NCBI RefSeq assembly: GCF_003326015.1
Contig: NZ_CP023860.1
Span: forward strand, 1,116,001 to 1,180,000
Direction of reading: 5' to 3'
DNA length: 64,000 nucleotides
From: Candidatus Thioglobus sp. NP1
Lineage (GTDB): Bacteria; Pseudomonadota; Gammaproteobacteria; PS1; Pseudothioglobaceae
Below the pieces are notes generated by a model. It had not been told where the DNA came from and did no database searches. It worked only from the letters and a program-made list of their open reading frames with translations. Below, piece after piece: positions 32,093 to 38,683 of this stretch (within the stretch, counting starts at the first letter, position 1; each line of letters starts with the position of its first letter). Position numbers and translations under genes: made by a program.

Positions 32093-32290
32093 ATGATTTG
32101 CTGGACAGACTCTTTAGAGATTGCTATTTCATTAGAAGAAAATCACCCAAATATTAACCCTACAACTATTAATTTTGTAGATCTTCGTCAACTTGTGCTT
32201 GATCTTGATGAATTTGAAGAGGGTCAAAGTAAATGTGGTGAGAGGGTTCTAGAAGCCATTCAAATGAATTGGATTGAGGAAAAAGATTGA
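32093..32290 (+). CDS. iscX: Fe-S assembly protein IscX
   Basis: About 65 residues from ATG 32093. A TTG at 32060 would add eleven hydrophobic residues not seen in the family. The sequence ICWTDSLEIAISLEENHPNI, then NFVDLRQLVLDLDEFE and ending LEAIQMNWIEEKD, matches IscX (YfhJ), a small acidic protein that binds IscS and modulates iron-sulphur cluster assembly. It is normally the last gene of the isc operon. Here it stands alone before tolB, whose TTG start overlaps the iscX stop. Confidence 0.9.
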   Translation: MICWTDSLEIAISLEENHPNINPTTINFVDLRQLVLDLDEFEEGQSKCGERVLEAIQMNWIEEKD

Positions 32291-33567
32291 AATACCTAAA
32301 AGCTCTTTTATTAATCACTACGTTAATTTCATTTTCTGCTAATGCTCTTTTAGAGGTAAATGTAGTCAAATCAAAAGAGGCTGCTTTTCCAATAGTAGTT
32401 GCCCCCTTTGAAATGATTGGTAATTTTGATGAGGACGTTGACCTTGCCTCAATCATAAGGGAAAATTTAAATCGATCAGGACAATTTGATGCAAAAAATA
32501 CAGATGAATTATTTAATGGAGTAATTGATTTTGATTTTTATCAACAACTAAAAAAAGATGCAATCGTATTTGGAAAAATAAGACAAGTTAGTGCCAACGT
32601 TAACCATGCAGAAATTTATGTTTATGACATTCTTACTAAAAAAGCTCTTTATCAGAAAAAAATAGCTTTCACTAATGGCGCTTTAAGAAGAATTGCCCAT
32701 GCTATAAGCGATAAGATATATTTTGTTCTACTTGGACAAAAAGGTGCTTTTGATACTAGATTGTCTTATGTGACTGTTAATGATAATTCAAGTGGTGGAA
32801 GAACATATAGACTTCAAATTTCAGACTCTGACGGATTTAATCCACGAACAGTAGTTCGATCCTCAAAGCCAATTTTATCACCTGCATGGTCCTCTGATCA
32901 AAGTAAACTTGCCTATGTTTCTTTTAAAAATAACCGCTCTGAAGTTTTTGCAATAACGCCTTTTCAAAAGACAAAGACGATAAAACTGCCAAAATTTGAT
33001 GGAATTGCATCTTCGCCAACTTGGCATCCAAATGGAGAAAGCCTTGCATTAACAATCTCTAAAAAAGGGAATAAAGATATTTACTTATATAACTTTAAGT
33101 CGAAAGACTTAAAAAGACTGACAACAAATAGTGCAATTGATACAGAGGCAAATTTCTCACCTGATGGTAAGAATATTGCATTTACCTCCAATAGGACAGG
33201 CCAAGTTCAGGTTTATATAAAAAATCTTAAATCTGGAAAAGTTAAAAGAGCTACTTTTGAAGGGCGATACAATGCAAAACCCGTATACTCTCCAGATGGC
33301 AATGAACTTGCTTTAATTCATCGTGTTGGTAAAGATTACAGACTGGCATTACTTGACATCTCATCAAGAGATTTAAGTGTTATGACCTTTAATAATTCTG
33401 ATGAGTCGCCTTACTTCTCCCCAAATGGTGGTATGATTATTTTTTCAACTAATAAAGATAACAAGGGAATATTGTCTATAATCTCACTTCATAACAATCA
33501 GATTATTGAATTAATGCAAAAAGAGGGTGAAATTCGAGAACCTAGTTGGTCAAACTATTCTAATTAA
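32287..33567 (+). CDS. tolB: Tol-Pal system protein TolB
   Basis: A 426-residue periplasmic protein starting with TTG at 32287, which overlaps the stop of iscX. The signal peptide ends near SFSANA. After the N-terminal TolA-contact domain comes a six-bladed beta propeller with repeated WD40-like blades such as SPAWSSDQSKLAYVS, SPDGKNIAFTSNRTGQVQVY and YSPDGNELALIHR. It links Pal to TolA in outer-membrane constriction. Pal follows after 10 bases. The usual upstream tolQ, tolR and tolA are not in the window. Confidence 0.95.
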   Translation: MKYLKALLLITTLISFSANALLEVNVVKSKEAAFPIVVAPFEMIGNFDEDVDLASIIRENLNRSGQFDAKNTDELFNGVIDFDFYQQLKKDAIVFGKIRQVSANVNHAEIYVYDILTKKALYQKKIAFTNGALRRIAHAISDKIYFVLLGQKGAFDTRLSYVTVNDNSSGGRTYRLQISDSDGFNPRTVVRSSKPILSPAWSSDQSKLAYVSFKNNRSEVFAITPFQKTKTIKLPKFDGIASSPTWHPNGESLALTISKKGNKDIYLYNFKSKDLKRLTTNSAIDTEANFSPDGKNIAFTSNRTGQVQVYIKNLKSGKVKRATFEGRYNAKPVYSPDGNELALIHRVGKDYRLALLDISSRDLSVMTFNNSDESPYFSPNGGMIIFSTNKDNKGILSIISLHNNQIIELMQKEGEIREPSWSNYSN

Positions 33568-33577
33568 GGAAATTAAA

Positions 33578-34420
33578 ATGTCAAAAAAAATTCTATTATT
33601 ATCAAGTGTCATTTTTCTCAGCTCATGTGCAGCTACTAATATTTCAGAGTTAGGTGATAAGTTTCTAGATCTTATTAATCCATCTGATGCTCCAGCTGAA
33701 GTTGCAGATTTGAGTGAGCAAGTTTTAGTATTAAGTGATGACGGTGGCTTTACTGTTGCTGAGCTTGAGCAATTATCAAATGATGAATTAATTGCAATTG
33801 CTAAAGAAAAAGGCCTTGAGGACATGATTGTTTTAGATGCTGATGGAAATTTACAAAATAGAGAGCAACTCATAAACGCTATAATAGAAAGTGGTGATCT
33901 TATGGATGGTAAGTCTGCTGAATTAGAGTCTCTTTCTGATGATGCACTTATTGAAATGGCAATTGCTAAAGGCATGGGCGACATGATCGAACTTGATGCA
34001 GATGGCAACCTACTAAATAGAGATGAGCTTGAAAGTGCTTTAATGGCAGATGCTTCTAAGGTTATGGCTGTGATCGAAGAATTTAAAAATAGTGGTACAT
34101 CTTTTATTCTTTATTTTGACTATGATGACACAGGTATTGATGAAGTGGCAACTAGGTCAATTATTGAACATGCCAACTTTATGCAAAATAACCCATCAGT
34201 TAATGTTCGTCTTGAAGGCCATGCTGATGAGAGGGGTACGCGTGAATATAATCTAGCTCTTGGTGAAAATCGTGCTTTAGCTGTTCAAGAAGTTCTTGGG
34301 CTATACAACCTAGAAGATAGGATTATGGTTGTTAGTTATGGTGAAGAGCAGCCCGTCCTAGTTGGAAGCAATGAAGAGGCTTGGGAAGAAAATCGAAGAG
34401 TAGAATTCTCATATTACTAG
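33578..34420 (+). CDS. pal: Peptidoglycan-associated lipoprotein Pal with tandem repeat insert
   Basis: About 280 residues from ATG 33578, preceded by AAGGA at 33566-33570. The frame is open upstream, but only this start gives a lipoprotein signal with lipobox LSSC (Cys17). The C-terminal OmpA domain (about 172-280) is normal, with VRLEGHADERGTREYNLALG and the peptidoglycan-binding NRRVEF. Unusual is the region between: two repeats of about 40 residues (63-102 and 116-155), each with L-S-x-D-x-L-I, K-G-x-x-D-M-I and DADGNL. Ordinary Pal proteins are about 170 residues and have only a short linker. It sits between tolB and cpoB. Confidence 0.92.
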   Translation: MSKKILLLSSVIFLSSCAATNISELGDKFLDLINPSDAPAEVADLSEQVLVLSDDGGFTVAELEQLSNDELIAIAKEKGLEDMIVLDADGNLQNREQLINAIIESGDLMDGKSAELESLSDDALIEMAIAKGMGDMIELDADGNLLNRDELESALMADASKVMAVIEEFKNSGTSFILYFDYDDTGIDEVATRSIIEHANFMQNNPSVNVRLEGHADERGTREYNLALGENRALAVQEVLGLYNLEDRIMVVSYGEEQPVLVGSNEEAWEENRRVEFSYY

Positions 34421-34471
34421 GCAAATAAATTGTACTAAAAACCTTTGTTATACGGTTCGTTTTATCGTCTG

Positions 34472-35128
34472 ATGAAAAAGTCTTTACTAAAATATCTCAT
34501 ATTTACGTTATGTTTCTTTTCTGCTGCAGGCATTAACGCAGAAGAGGGACTTGATATTGATATGATTTTATTAAAGCTAAATAAAGAACTTAAGACGCTT
34601 AATAAAGAAATTCTATCATTAAAAGATAATAATGAGCTTCTTAGTGAGGAGCTCAGACTTAATTCTGAAAAAATAACTGAATTGTTTGAAATAATTGAAT
34701 TGAATTCTTCAAAAAAAGAAAAAATAATAAAAACAACTAAAACAGACTCAGAAACAAAAGCATTAAAATTATTCTCTGATGGAAAAAGTAGCTTTGTCCT
34801 TGAGGATTATCAAAAAGCTATCAAATTATTCTCCAGCTATCTAGATACCTTTCCAAATTCTATCAATACTGAAGACTCTAAGTTATGGCTTGCACGCTCT
34901 TACTTTGCAAGTGGCTCTTCATTAAGATCCAAGGAAAAATATCAAGAATTTCATGCTAATGGCAATAAAGACCATCCAAAGTTTGCAGATTCACTCTACG
35001 AACTATCTATTGCCTTAATTGATTTAAAAGAATTTAGTGGCGCAAAAGTCTTGCTGTCTAAAATGATCGATGAGTATCCTGACCATGCTTTAAATCCAAA
35101 AGCTAATCAATTGCTTGAAGACCTCTAA
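34472..35128 (+). CDS. cpoB: Cell division coordinator CpoB (YbgF)
   Basis: About 218 residues from ATG 34472, which directly starts a signal peptide ending AAGINA. The longer TTG start at 34445 would disrupt it. A coiled-coil trimerisation helix of about 60 residues (LLKLNKELKTLNKEILSLKD) is followed by three TPR motifs (KLFSDGKSSFVLEDYQKAIK, KLWLARSYFASGS). This is the standard CpoB form, which binds TolA and PBP1B. It follows pal as in other genomes. Confidence 0.92.
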   Translation: MKKSLLKYLIFTLCFFSAAGINAEEGLDIDMILLKLNKELKTLNKEILSLKDNNELLSEELRLNSEKITELFEIIELNSSKKEKIIKTTKTDSETKALKLFSDGKSSFVLEDYQKAIKLFSSYLDTFPNSINTEDSKLWLARSYFASGSSLRSKEKYQEFHANGNKDHPKFADSLYELSIALIDLKEFSGAKVLLSKMIDEYPDHALNPKANQLLEDL

Positions 35129-35133
35129 CTTAA

Positions 35134-36426
35134 GTGAAAACTATTGAAATACAAAAAGTTGATTTAGCTTCTTTTTGTTATCTTGATAACTCTAGATATC
35201 CTTTCTTACTTGAAAGTGTAAATCACAATGATAATAATAGATACTCAATATTATTTGCTTTCCCAGGTGAAAATATAGTTCTTAACAATGCTTCTGACTT
35301 TGACTTTTTAAATAAGCTTGAAAGTAAATATAAGTTAAATAATACAAACTCAGATTTACCTTTTTGTGGAGGCTGGTTTGTCTATCTTTCTTATGAATTA
35401 ATTGGCCAAATTGAAAATACCTTATCTGCTGATCTTCATAACTCAGATTTACCAATTGCGTACGCTGTTAAGATTCCTACTGCAATAATCATTGATCACC
35501 AGTTAGATAAAACTTATATCGTAGATGAGAGTAATGATGATTCTCGAATTAACTTAATATTAGATGATATTAAACTTATCAATCTAATCCCATTAAGCCC
35601 ATTAGAGGGAAGCTTATCTGAGGAAAACCAAGAAAAATTTATTAGTGGAGTACAAAGTAGCCTAAAGTATATTATTGCTGGTGATGTTTTTCAGGTCAAC
35701 TTGTCAAGAGAATGGCAATATAAGCTAAATAATCATGTAGATTCAGCTGCTATTTATAAATCCTTAAAAAAAGCTAATCCAGCCCCTTTCTCTGCTTTAA
35801 TTCACTATCAAGACTTTAGTATAATCTCATCTTCACCAGAGAGGCTCTTTAGCGTCAATAATGATGTTTTACAAACAAGGCCAATTGCTGGAACTCATCC
35901 TAGAGGTAAGGGCTCTGATGATGAAACTTTAAAAGATAATTTAATCAGTAATCCTAAGGAAATTGCTGAACATGTTATGCTACTTGACCTTGAGAGAAAT
36001 GATATGGGAAGGGTATGTGAATACGGAAGTGTCTTTGTTAATGAGGTTATGACTCTTGAGACATACCCATATGTGCATCATATAGTTTCAAATATCAAAG
36101 GAAAACTTAAAAAACAGGTAGGTATAAAAGATATTATCAAGGCACTTTTTCCTGGTGGAACGATTACTGGATGTCCTAAAGTCCGCTGTATGCAAATCAT
36201 TAGTGAGTTAGAGCAAATGCCAAGAGAAGCCTATACAGGCTCAGTAGGTTATTTAAGTCAAAATGGGAGGATGGACTTTAATATTCTTATACGTAGCTTT
36301 ATCCATAAAGATAATAAGTTAAGCTTTAGAGCAGGTGCTGGAATTGTATATGACTCAATCCCAGAGAGAGAATTAGCTGAAACTAGGCATAAGGCAGAAG
36401 GCTTAATCAAAGTATTTAAAGACTAA
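35134..36426 (+). CDS. pabB: Aminodeoxychorismate synthase component I (PabB-like)
   Basis: A 430-residue chorismate-binding enzyme of the TrpE/PabB superfamily. The chorismate-binding domain is complete: YIIAGDVFQVNLSREW, HVMLLDLERNDMGRV, ETYPYVHHIVSN and LFPGGTITGCPKVRCM. Length and the N-terminal RYPFLLESVNH fit PabB rather than TrpE (about 500). It should make aminodeoxychorismate for folate with a PabA glutaminase. One oddity is PIAGT at residues 250-254, where PabB enzymes of the E. coli type have lysine (PIKGT) and TrpE has alanine. TrpE-like activity is therefore an alternative. It ends 4 bases from the convergent nadE. Confidence 0.83.
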   Translation: MKTIEIQKVDLASFCYLDNSRYPFLLESVNHNDNNRYSILFAFPGENIVLNNASDFDFLNKLESKYKLNNTNSDLPFCGGWFVYLSYELIGQIENTLSADLHNSDLPIAYAVKIPTAIIIDHQLDKTYIVDESNDDSRINLILDDIKLINLIPLSPLEGSLSEENQEKFISGVQSSLKYIIAGDVFQVNLSREWQYKLNNHVDSAAIYKSLKKANPAPFSALIHYQDFSIISSSPERLFSVNNDVLQTRPIAGTHPRGKGSDDETLKDNLISNPKEIAEHVMLLDLERNDMGRVCEYGSVFVNEVMTLETYPYVHHIVSNIKGKLKKQVGIKDIIKALFPGGTITGCPKVRCMQIISELEQMPREAYTGSVGYLSQNGRMDFNILIRSFIHKDNKLSFRAGAGIVYDSIPERELAETRHKAEGLIKVFKD

Positions 36427-36430
36427 TGCT

Positions 36431-38305
36431 TTAAGGTTGAAACTTAGAGGTCATAGGATATCGCCTCTCCCTTCCAAAAGCATTACTACTTATCTTGGGT
36501 CCAGGAGCAGATTGTCGTCTTTTGTATTCATTTCTAAGAATCATTGAAGTTACTTTATTTACCACCTCTAAACTATGGCCTTGCTCGGTTATTTTATCAA
36601 CAGATTCTTTAAGCTCAACAAATCGCATCAAAATATCATCCAAAACATCATAAGAAGGAAGGGTATCCTGATCTTCTTGATTTGGAGCTAACTCAGCAGA
36701 GGGTGGCCTTGTAATAACTCTCTCAGGAATAACTTCTGAAATTGAATTTCTATAATTAGATAGTTTATAAACCATTGTTTTTGAAATATCTTTTAATGGC
36801 GCAAATCCTCCACACATATCTCCATAGAGGGTTGCATATCCCACTGCCATTTCAGATTTATTGCCTGTTGCTAAAACTATTTTATGATGTTTATTAGATA
36901 GAGCCATAAGCAAGGTTCCACGAACTCTAGCCTGAATATTTTCCTCAGTTGAATCCACTTTTGCATTACCAAAAAGGTCATTAAGAGAATTATTAAACGA
37001 ATCCACCATAGAATGAATATCAATATTAGAAAATTCTACACCCTGATTTCTAGCCTGTAATGCAGAATCTTCAAGACTCATATTGGAGGTAAATTCATAT
37101 GGCATCATTACTGCATGGACATTTTCAGATCCAATAGCATCAACTGCAACAGCGAGCGTCAATGCCGAATCAATACCTCCAGAAAGCCCTATTAAGGCAC
37201 CACCAAATGAATTCTTTCTAATATAATCCCGTGTTGCTAAAACAAGAGCTGAGTAAATAGAGGCCTCCTTATTAATAGGCTTATAAGATTCAATAGAGGC
37301 GGAATGCATAGAGCAAAGTTCTTCAAATTCTGGTAATTGAAGCGTTACATCTCCATTTTGATTAACCACAAATGAGCTTCCATCAAATACAACTTCATCT
37401 TGACCACCAACCATATTGACATAAATAAATGTGACATCGAAGTGTTTCGCGTATTTTTGACAAATATCAAGTCTTTCTTGTTGCTTTTCTGACTGAAAGG
37501 GAGATGCATTGATAGAAATAACAATATCAATATTAGACTGACATAATCTAGAAATAGGGCCATCAATCCATTGGTCCTCACATATCAATACGCCAATTTT
37601 AGTTTGTTGACACTCAAATATCAATGATTCATTACCAGCAGTAAAATATCGCTTTTCATCAAAAACACCATAATTGGGCAATTCTTGTTTATTGTATATA
37701 TGAGAGATAAGATTATGTTGAATACAGATAGCACTATTAAATAAAAGATCATTAGTTTTTTGAGGGGCACCAAACAAAACAGAAATATTTGATGGAACAG
37801 ATTTACATAGATAACCTATCTCTTCGTTAACTTGCTCAATAAAACCTTCACGGTACAAAAGATCTTCAGGAGGATAACCAGTAAGAGCCAACTCTGGAAA
37901 TACAATTAAATGAGCGCCAGAATCATAAGCCTCTTGAATCAAATTTAACATTTTTTGAGCATTAGACTTAATATCGCCAACAATAGGGTTAAATTGTGCG
38001 ATTTGAATTTGAATAGGCTCTGATTCAGAAAAAATCTTATTTAACTGTTGCTGCCAAAATTTCGCCTTTGAATTATTATCAGTATTAATTGCATGCTCAT
38101 ACTTGGTATTAGCAACAACTACAGCTGGGTCTATATCAAGGATATTTGCAAATAACCAGGCATGCGTTTCACTTAAAGCAGCCTTACCAGAGCTATATTT
38201 ACTAAGATTCGATTGATTTATATCATATTCTTTAGATATTTTATAATCAGAAAAACCTGTTTTTTCACGCACCAGAGCAAGGTATTCAATAGTTTTTTTA
38301 TTCAT
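36431..38305 (-). CDS. nadE: Glutamine-dependent NAD+ synthetase with N-terminal HTH domain
   Basis: A 624-residue protein with three parts. Residues 1-95 are a helix-turn-helix domain of the XRE/Cro kind (SDYKISKEYDINQSNLSKYS, then LSETHAWLFANILDIDP) resembling small phage-type regulators such as DUF3693. From about 97 comes the nitrilase-type glutaminase with E138 (VFPELALTGYPPED), K206 and C242 (LICEDQW), then the NAD synthetase with SGGIDS at 375-380. It converts deamido-NAD to NAD with glutamine as nitrogen source. No methionine or other good start lies between residue 1 and 119, so the fusion is read as one protein. Ordinary NadE begins where the glutaminase begins. Confidence 0.92.
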   Translation of the reverse strand: MNKKTIEYLALVREKTGFSDYKISKEYDINQSNLSKYSSGKAALSETHAWLFANILDIDPAVVVANTKYEHAINTDNNSKAKFWQQQLNKIFSESEPIQIQIAQFNPIVGDIKSNAQKMLNLIQEAYDSGAHLIVFPELALTGYPPEDLLYREGFIEQVNEEIGYLCKSVPSNISVLFGAPQKTNDLLFNSAICIQHNLISHIYNKQELPNYGVFDEKRYFTAGNESLIFECQQTKIGVLICEDQWIDGPISRLCQSNIDIVISINASPFQSEKQQERLDICQKYAKHFDVTFIYVNMVGGQDEVVFDGSSFVVNQNGDVTLQLPEFEELCSMHSASIESYKPINKEASIYSALVLATRDYIRKNSFGGALIGLSGGIDSALTLAVAVDAIGSENVHAVMMPYEFTSNMSLEDSALQARNQGVEFSNIDIHSMVDSFNNSLNDLFGNAKVDSTEENIQARVRGTLLMALSNKHHKIVLATGNKSEMAVGYATLYGDMCGGFAPLKDISKTMVYKLSNYRNSISEVIPERVITRPPSAELAPNQEDQDTLPSYDVLDDILMRFVELKESVDKITEQGHSLEVVNKVTSMILRNEYKRRQSAPGPKISSNAFGRERRYPMTSKFQP

Positions 38306-38350
38306 AAATATTTATATATTAATGTATATATTAGTTATTTTATACCACTA

Positions 38351-38412
38351 TAGGTATTAATTAACTATAGTTACATAAAATTAACTTAGATAATAGAAGT
38401 AATTAATACCTA
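38351..38412. repeat. 13-base inverted repeat, possible operator
   Basis: TAGGTATTAATTA at 38351-38363 is the exact reverse complement of TAATTAATACCTA at 38400-38412, with a 36-base spacer. It starts 46 bases upstream of the nadE start codon. Two arms on nearly the same DNA face could bind a dimeric HTH regulator, perhaps the HTH-NadE protein itself. Confidence 0.5.
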
Positions 38413-38683
38413 ATATTTATTTAAGTTATTGATTTAACGTATTTTTTTAATTTAATTAATATTGTAATAAAATTTAAAAAAAATTTATTTTTTATCAAAA
38501 TAATTCAGTTTTTTCTTGATATATTAAGTTCAAATAGTTGAGTTTTATAATTTTTATTAACTCAATAATTGACAATATTTTTGTCTACATTGTCCTATTT
38601 GATAAGCCTTAGAAGAGTAATTTGATTACTATTAATTTGCAAAAAAACTTTATTAAGTTAGGAACTAATGATAAAATTTAGAG

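What the first reader, a model, noticed from the sequence alone, without database searches (positions are those of the whole stretch)
36431..38305. Helix-turn-helix domain fused to NAD+ synthetase
NadE enzymes normally begin with the glutaminase domain. Here about 95 residues of a Cro/XRE-type HTH (resembling DUF3693 phage regulators) precede an apparently complete glutaminase plus synthetase, with no internal start. An enzyme that both makes NAD and can bind DNA would be a direct metabolic regulator, comparable in idea to NadR, BirA or PutA, but I know of no described NadE of this kind.
Basis: partly seen in the sequence, partly recalled or inferred. Interest (0 to 1): 0.85.

Follow-up and report, generated by a model that had tools for sequence, protein, structure and literature searches.

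The report
DNA-binding NAD synthetase with own operators
In one family of sulfur-oxidising marine bacteria and shellfish symbionts, the enzyme that makes NAD carries a built-in DNA-binding domain, and its own promoter carries a conserved array of likely binding sites, so the enzyme probably controls its own production.

Summary
Confirmed and extended. Window 36431-38305 (minus strand) is one 624-aa frame: an XRE/Cro-type HTH (residues ~4-76), a linker helix, and a complete glutamine-dependent NAD synthetase (97-623; 725 bits). It is no start-site artefact. All 29 nadE genes found in 37 genomes of the family begin with it; none of 17 near-full-length nadE genes from other families does. The HTH is the most constrained part of the protein (pN/pS 0.17; glutaminase 0.38, synthetase 0.22). 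The nadE promoter holds an array of 13-bp palindromes, GKTA-N5-TAMC: two or more in 29 of 29 family genomes, in 0 of 17 outgroup promoters, and in 0.5 to 1.5 of 29 after shuffling. An IHF-like box lies upstream. The array follows nadE past changing neighbours; no second cluster of exact sites was found in the own genome. Best reading: a 'trigger enzyme', the genome's only recognised NAD synthetase, that represses its own promoter. DNA binding, repression and the sensed ligand are inferred, not shown. Seven literature searches listed no NadE of this kind. A new variant of a known kind (PutA, NadR, BirA).

The parts
36431..38305 (-). HTH-nadE fusion gene, 624 aa, ATG start, TAA stop
   Evidence: single open frame
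38078..38296 (-). XRE/Cro-type HTH domain, residues 4-76; recognition helix 31-39; residues 29-37 and 39-40 invariant in 19 sequences
38018..38077 (-). linker, residues 77-96, with helix 78-94
   Evidence: less conserved than the HTH
37286..38017 (-). glutaminase (CN-hydrolase) domain, residues 97-340; E138, K206, C242 invariant in 19 sequences
36434..37285 (-). NAD synthetase domain, residues 341-624; SGGIDSA loop at 375-381
38334..38346 (-). operator O1, GGTATAAAATAAC (-41 to -29 from the start codon)
38328..38333 (-). -10-like hexamer TAATAT directly after O1 (4 of 6 matches); TATAGT directly after O2 is a rival
   Evidence: sequence
38353..38365 (-). operator O2, GTTAATTAATACC (-60)
38398..38410 (-). 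operator O3, GGTATTAATTACT (-105), one mismatch
38422..38434 (-). IHF-like box AATCAATAACTTA (-129), exact WATCAANNNNTTR (consensus recalled)

Best explanation
It is a trigger enzyme: a glutamine-dependent NAD synthetase fused to a Cro/XRE-type DNA-binding domain that binds palindromic operators (GKTA-N5-TAMC) in its own promoter and represses it. In many relatives an operator directly abuts a TATAAT hexamer, so binding should block RNA polymerase. Two or more operators and an IHF-like bend site upstream suggest cooperative binding by a multimeric enzyme that presents several HTHs. The feedback would keep the dose of the single NAD synthetase matched to need; occupancy of the active site (deamido-NAD, ATP, glutamine) may shift the balance between enzyme and repressor. 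Shown: the fusion, its conservation, the promoter array. Inferred: that this HTH binds those sites, that the effect is repression, the multimeric state, and tuning by a ligand.
For: 29 of 29 nadE genes found in 37 family genomes (nine genera) begin with the HTH. Mean pairwise identity is 0.81 in the HTH, 0.59 glutaminase, 0.74 synthetase; pN/pS 0.17, 0.38, 0.22. Recognition-helix residues are invariant in 19 sequences, S38 excepted. HTH and enzyme distances correlate at 0.92. Two or more operators within 150 nt in 29 of 29, against 0.5 of 29 (single-base shuffle) or 1.5 of 29, at most 5 (shuffle in units of two bases); 0 of 29 at -400 to -250 and 0 of 17 outgroup promoters; 55 of 56 named loci. 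TATAAT directly follows an operator in 31 of 57 against 0.9, at most 3, at random positions. The array stays with nadE although the upstream neighbour changes. In the own genome the only close pair of exact sites is at nadE, 17 sites in all against 20 for the reversed pattern. One nadE over the cut-off in 4 of 4 complete genomes; NrtR in 0 of 4, NadR over cut-off in 0 of 4.
Against: No binding or expression data. The operator model was learned from these promoters, so the controls are partly circular; 13 of 17 outgroup promoters are above 40% GC (the other four have no site either). The loose -10 test (54 of 57) means little: random positions give 28.5, up to 40. In complete genome G031 only one exact site lies at nadE, so no exact pair there, though a second site has one mismatch. 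Foldseek gave no PDB match at E <= 0.001, best 0.077, with probabilities mostly near 1; best VIA Z is 9.0, modest for a helical domain. HTH_3 in the window protein is under the Pfam cut-off. Three of 56 named loci stop early. A stand-alone relative of the HTH exists in one family genome. No HU/IHF-type hit passes the himA cut-off.
Confidence: 0.72

Rival explanations
1. The HTH-NadE binds the array but activates its promoter, with IHF bending upstream DNA towards RNA polymerase, rather than repressing it.
For: IHF-like box, exact in 42 of 56 named loci and 19 of 29 genomes, 3% in shuffles; distal operators near -89 or -105 would suit an activator.
Against: TATAAT directly follows an operator in 31 of 57 promoters, 0.9 expected at random positions, the usual place of a repressor.
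Confidence: 0.13
2. The array is bound by a different regulator, for example a separate XRE protein, and the fused HTH has another job.
For: A stand-alone 84-aa relative of the HTH lies in one family genome (L124 1498-1752). Other HTH proteins of these genomes were not surveyed.
Against: At E <= 1e-6 the HTH profile finds only the fused copy in complete genomes G000, G029 and G031, and each has two or more operator sites upstream of nadE. The array was found in the genomes with the fusion (29 of 29) and not in the 17 without.
Confidence: 0.08
3. The HTH fold was recruited as a structural or oligomerisation domain and no longer binds DNA, as is recalled for the N-terminal domain of cyanase.
For: Two enzymes with XRE-like domains, cyanase 6xgt and MPnS 6b9s (each Z 6.3), are among the structure matches.
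Against: Recognition-helix residues, which a scaffold would not need, are invariant in 19 sequences, S38 excepted, and an operator-like array accompanies the gene.
Confidence: 0.05
4. Artefact: translation really starts near residue 96 and the upstream frame is open by chance.
For: NadE of other families in the class starts there; 8 of 26 genes have a GTG or TTG between residues 77 and 112.
Against: No such codon in the window gene, strong purifying selection on the extension, conservation across the family.
Confidence: 0.01

Closest known systems
NadR of enterobacteria (HTH plus NMN adenylyltransferase)
   Same: an NAD-pathway enzyme with a DNA-binding domain
   Different: another enzyme of the pathway; controls nadA-pnuC and others and is reported only in Enterobacteriales among Proteobacteria (PMC5343134, passages); no match over the family cut-off in 4 complete genomes here
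PutA, PepA, BirA 'trigger enzymes'
   Same: enzyme that doubles as a transcription factor; PutA binds the spacer between putA and putP (PMC8249747, passages)
   Different: other enzymes; here the gene upstream of nadE differs between genera
NrtR and NadQ, NAD-metabolism regulators
   Same: regulate NAD genes; NadQ through palindromes (PMC5343134, passages)
   Different: not fused to NadE; NrtR domain in 0 of 4 complete genomes; NadQ not searched for
Type F (glutaminase-fused) NAD synthetase
   Same: same enzyme architecture from residue 97
   Different: the passages read describe one- and two-domain forms only (PMC3376133)
HigA/CI-type XRE repressors
   Same: fold of residues 1-79
   Different: antitoxins or repressors in the entries listed, not joined to a biosynthetic enzyme

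Membership tests
Glutamine-dependent NAD+ synthase (NF010588) | profile score over curated cut-off | tested here: met
   725.5 bits, cut-off 479
Glutamine-dependent NAD+ synthase (NF010588) | Glu-Lys-Cys glutaminase triad and SGG.DSA ATP loop (motifs recalled) | tested here: met
   E138, K206, C242 and 375-381 invariant in 19 sequences
Glutamine-dependent NAD+ synthase (NF010588) | NAD synthesis activity | not testable with these tools
   no assay; only nadE over cut-off in 4 of 4 complete genomes
XRE/Cro-type HTH | HTH_3 profile match | tested here: met
   17 of 17 members at E <= 0.01, best 1.2e-7; the window protein itself 20.6-22.7 bits, under the cut-off of 23
XRE/Cro-type HTH | HTH fold | tested here: met
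   model pLDDT 94.0; DNA-bound HigA 6chv Z 9.0, rmsd 2.7, 77 residues; Foldseek best E 0.077
Trigger enzyme (enzyme plus transcription factor) | sequence-specific DNA binding and regulation | not testable with these tools
   indirect: conserved operator array
NadR | TIGR01526 over cut-off | tested here: not met
   0 of 4 complete genomes over cut-off; weak partial matches only
NrtR | NrtR_WHD domain | tested here: not met
   0 of 4 complete genomes
NadQ | COG4111 family with NrtR-like HTH | not tested
   described in PMC5343134; not searched for
DUF3693 | Pfam profile match | tested here: inconclusive
   not listed at E <= 1 or 0.01

The most novel reading that the evidence does not exclude
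The last enzyme of NAD synthesis senses its own substrate or product load and, through a fused phage-type HTH, forms a multi-operator repression complex with IHF on its own promoter: a one-protein homeostat for an essential cofactor, fixed in a whole bacterial family including genome-reduced symbionts.
Probability: 0.4. Interest if true: 0.88.

Novelty: new variant of a known kind. Interest (0 to 1): 0.77.

Why it matters
NAD synthetase is essential, and my searches listed no report of it acting as a transcription factor. The family includes ocean sulfur oxidisers and mussel and clam symbionts with small genomes, so a self-contained enzyme-repressor would show how cofactor homeostasis can be kept with few regulators. 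Protein, operators and predictions are concrete enough to test in one binding experiment.

Tried and rejected
Wider occurrence: the HTH profile at E <= 1e-6 hit 4 of 369 class genomes, all 4 of this family. An NF010588 search matched 310 of 398 phylum genomes, but only part of its match rows were printed. Of those I fetched the upstream stretch of 20 with long open frames; by eye none looks HTH-like. G771 (frame over 1000 aa) and several frames of 601-610 aa were not read, so other HTH-NadE fusions are not excluded.

RNA element: one sub-threshold chance match, mir-44. Wider regulon: exact sites elsewhere are at or below the reversed control. The two 1-mismatch hits lie in a purH-like gene and at the 3' end of a leuS-like gene. 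Thirteen further exact sites: 7 inside genes, 6 intergenic, none beside a gene that I recognised by eye as NAD-related. The nadA loci of four genomes (3.9 kb each) carry one to four one-mismatch sites each, three of them within about 200 nt in L141; none is exact.

Origin of the HTH: no match in phages, four Cupriavidus plasmids at 31%, none in viral contigs. The consensus promoter scan found 2 sites, both on this strand and neither proximal, against 4.7 in shuffles. HU/IHF-type hits are present in 4 of 4 genomes, none over the himA cut-off, so the IHF reading is tentative. One search read minus-strand loci in the wrong orientation; one search replaced it.

Literature, top rows listed only: 20 of 103, 12 of 213 (49), 7 of 7 (66), 12 of 14 (67), 12 of 120 (77), 12 of 137 (78), 10 of 35 (82); none names an HTH-NadE in title or abstract start. 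Only open-access PMC papers are held.

Full report
What is there. The minus-strand frame 36431-38305 encodes 624 aa. Residues 97-623 are a complete glutamine-dependent NAD synthetase (NF010588, 725.5 bits; best solved match 5kha, aligned from residue 98). Residues 1-96 match HTH families: HTH_3 below its cut-off and PHROG 4441 (E 2.1e-13 for the segment). The AlphaFold model of 1-96 has helices 4-16, 20-27, 31-39, 46-56, 60-74 and 78-94 at mean pLDDT 94.0; the full-length model is weaker (78.9). Structure matches are XRE repressors and antitoxins, best DNA-bound HigA (6chv, Z 9.0, rmsd 2.7, 77 residues, 18% identity). Foldseek itself gave no match at E 0.001 or better, best 0.077, so the assignment rests on profile, model and the VIA look together.

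How widespread. The whole protein was searched in 58 genomes. Of the 37 in the window's family (nine genera), 29 have a nadE match; the other eight are 54-81% complete. All 29 matches begin at residue 1-4, and the 29 genes were read. In other families of the class, 17 near-full-length nadE matches begin at residue 81-101 (16) or 108 (one), and their upstream stretches show no HTH by eye. A scan of genome contigs with the HTH as query returned 59 loci: three Flavobacterium HTH proteins without NadE and 56 others, many titled Candidatus Thioglobus, Pseudothioglobus, Ruthia, Ruthturnera, Thiodubiliella or Bathymodiolus symbiont, the rest uncultured bacteria whose family was not checked. These 56 carry the HTH by construction; what is informative is that 49 continue into a complete fused frame of 620-626 aa, four are cut by the contig end and three (L064, L096, L105) stop early. 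At least 23 of the 56 share their promoter with one of the 29 genomes, so the two sets overlap. That the window's genus is Pseudothioglobus is inferred: contig G002:C23 of the same genus has the length (20262) of a Candidatus Pseudothioglobus aerophilus contig; NCBI places that genus in Pseudothioglobaceae. In 369 genomes of the class the HTH profile hits four at E <= 1e-6, all in this family.

Selection. Over 26 sequences (three incomplete ones dropped) mean pairwise identity is 0.81 in residues 11-76, 0.67 in 1-10, 0.62 in the linker, 0.59 in the glutaminase and 0.74 in the synthetase. pN/pS against the window gene is 0.167 for residues 4-76, 0.282 linker, 0.378 glutaminase, 0.222 synthetase. 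Residues I29 to Y37, S39 and G40 are invariant in 19 sequences. HTH and enzyme distances correlate at 0.92. Between residues 77 and 112 an in-frame GTG occurs in 1 of 26 genes and a TTG in 7, none in the window gene. An annotation artefact is very unlikely.

The promoter. Upstream regions of the genus share a block next to the start codon. A matrix search shows a 13-bp palindrome, G(G/T)TA-N5-TA(A/C)C. Within 150 nt, two or more sites (up to one mismatch) occur in 29 of 29 genomes, mean 3.1, against a mean of 0.2 in single-base shuffles; at -400 to -250 the mean is 0.24 and none has two; 0 of 17 outgroup promoters have two and one has a single site. Shuffling in units of two bases gives 1.5 of 29, at most 5. 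Of the 56 named loci 55 have two or more. In the window genus sites start near -105, -60 and -41, in the other genera usually near -89, -53 and often -33. TATAAT directly follows an operator in 31 of 57 promoters (56 named plus window) against 0.9 at random positions; the looser -10 test, 54 of 57, is weak because random positions give 28.5. In the window gene the abutting hexamers are TAATAT after O1 and TATAGT after O2. An IHF-like box WATCAANNNNTTR (consensus recalled) is exact in 42 of 56 named loci and 19 of 29 genomes, 3% in shuffles, and within one mismatch in 53 of 57. Of 43 promoters with an exact box, an operator starts 43 bp from it in 22, 24 bp from it in 16 (one promoter counted in both), and at neither in 6. 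In L084, L092, L109 and L113 the block lies elsewhere relative to the start codon and the 43 bp are kept, so it behaves as a unit.

Why I link the two. The array stays with nadE while the gene upstream changes: aapJ-like in most, Sel1-like, hemH-like or argF-like in others, all named by eye. It has the shape expected of a dimeric Cro/XRE protein (recalled). Exact sites in the own genome number 17 against 20 for the reversed pattern, and the only close pair is at nadE. In G006 and G029 the closest exact pair is also at nadE; G031 has one exact site there; counts are 10 against 27, 7 against 14 and 14 against 24. Clusters of imperfect sites were sought only in the window, where nadE's is the only one. 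The profile finds no second copy of this HTH in G000, G029 or G031 at E <= 1e-6. Four complete genomes have nadA and one nadE over the cut-off each, no NrtR domain and no NadR over the cut-off.

Mechanism. I read it as a self-repressing trigger enzyme. Binding, repression, cooperativity by a multimeric enzyme, and control by substrate or product are inference. Activation, another regulator on the array, and a purely structural HTH are weighed as rivals.

Compared with what is known. Enzyme-regulator proteins are established: a research paper lists BirA, NadR, PepA, PutA and PyrH for E. coli, with PutA binding only the putA-putP spacer (PMC8249747, passages). NAD genes of Proteobacteria are described as controlled by NadR, NrtR or NadQ (PMC5343134, passages). 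A survey of the NAD synthetase family describes one- and two-domain forms (PMC3376133, passages). Seven literature searches, of which I saw the top rows, listed nothing on a DNA-binding NadE. So: a known kind of arrangement, in an enzyme for which I found no report of it, with a clear promoter signature.

Noticed in passing
L124 1498-1752 (genome G261): A stand-alone 84-aa relative of the HTH domain without NadE, upstream of a ribonucleotide-reductase-like gene (named by eye).
   Followed up: partly
window 38422-38434 and relatives: IHF-like box upstream of the operators, at 43 or 24 bp in most; HU/IHF-type genes are present but none passes the himA cut-off.
   Followed up: partly
L105 3001-3210: In-frame stop after codon 69, between HTH and enzyme, in one MAG; sequencing error or a real split.
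   Followed up: partly
window 32287-36426: TolB-, Pal- and CpoB-like genes and a PabB-like gene (named by eye) that converges on nadE with a 4-base gap; the same neighbours recur beside nadE in many family genomes.
   Followed up: no
G006, G029, G031 whole genomes: Exact operator-type palindromes are fewer than the reversed control (10/27, 7/14, 14/24), perhaps avoidance of stray sites or only a composition effect.
   Followed up: no
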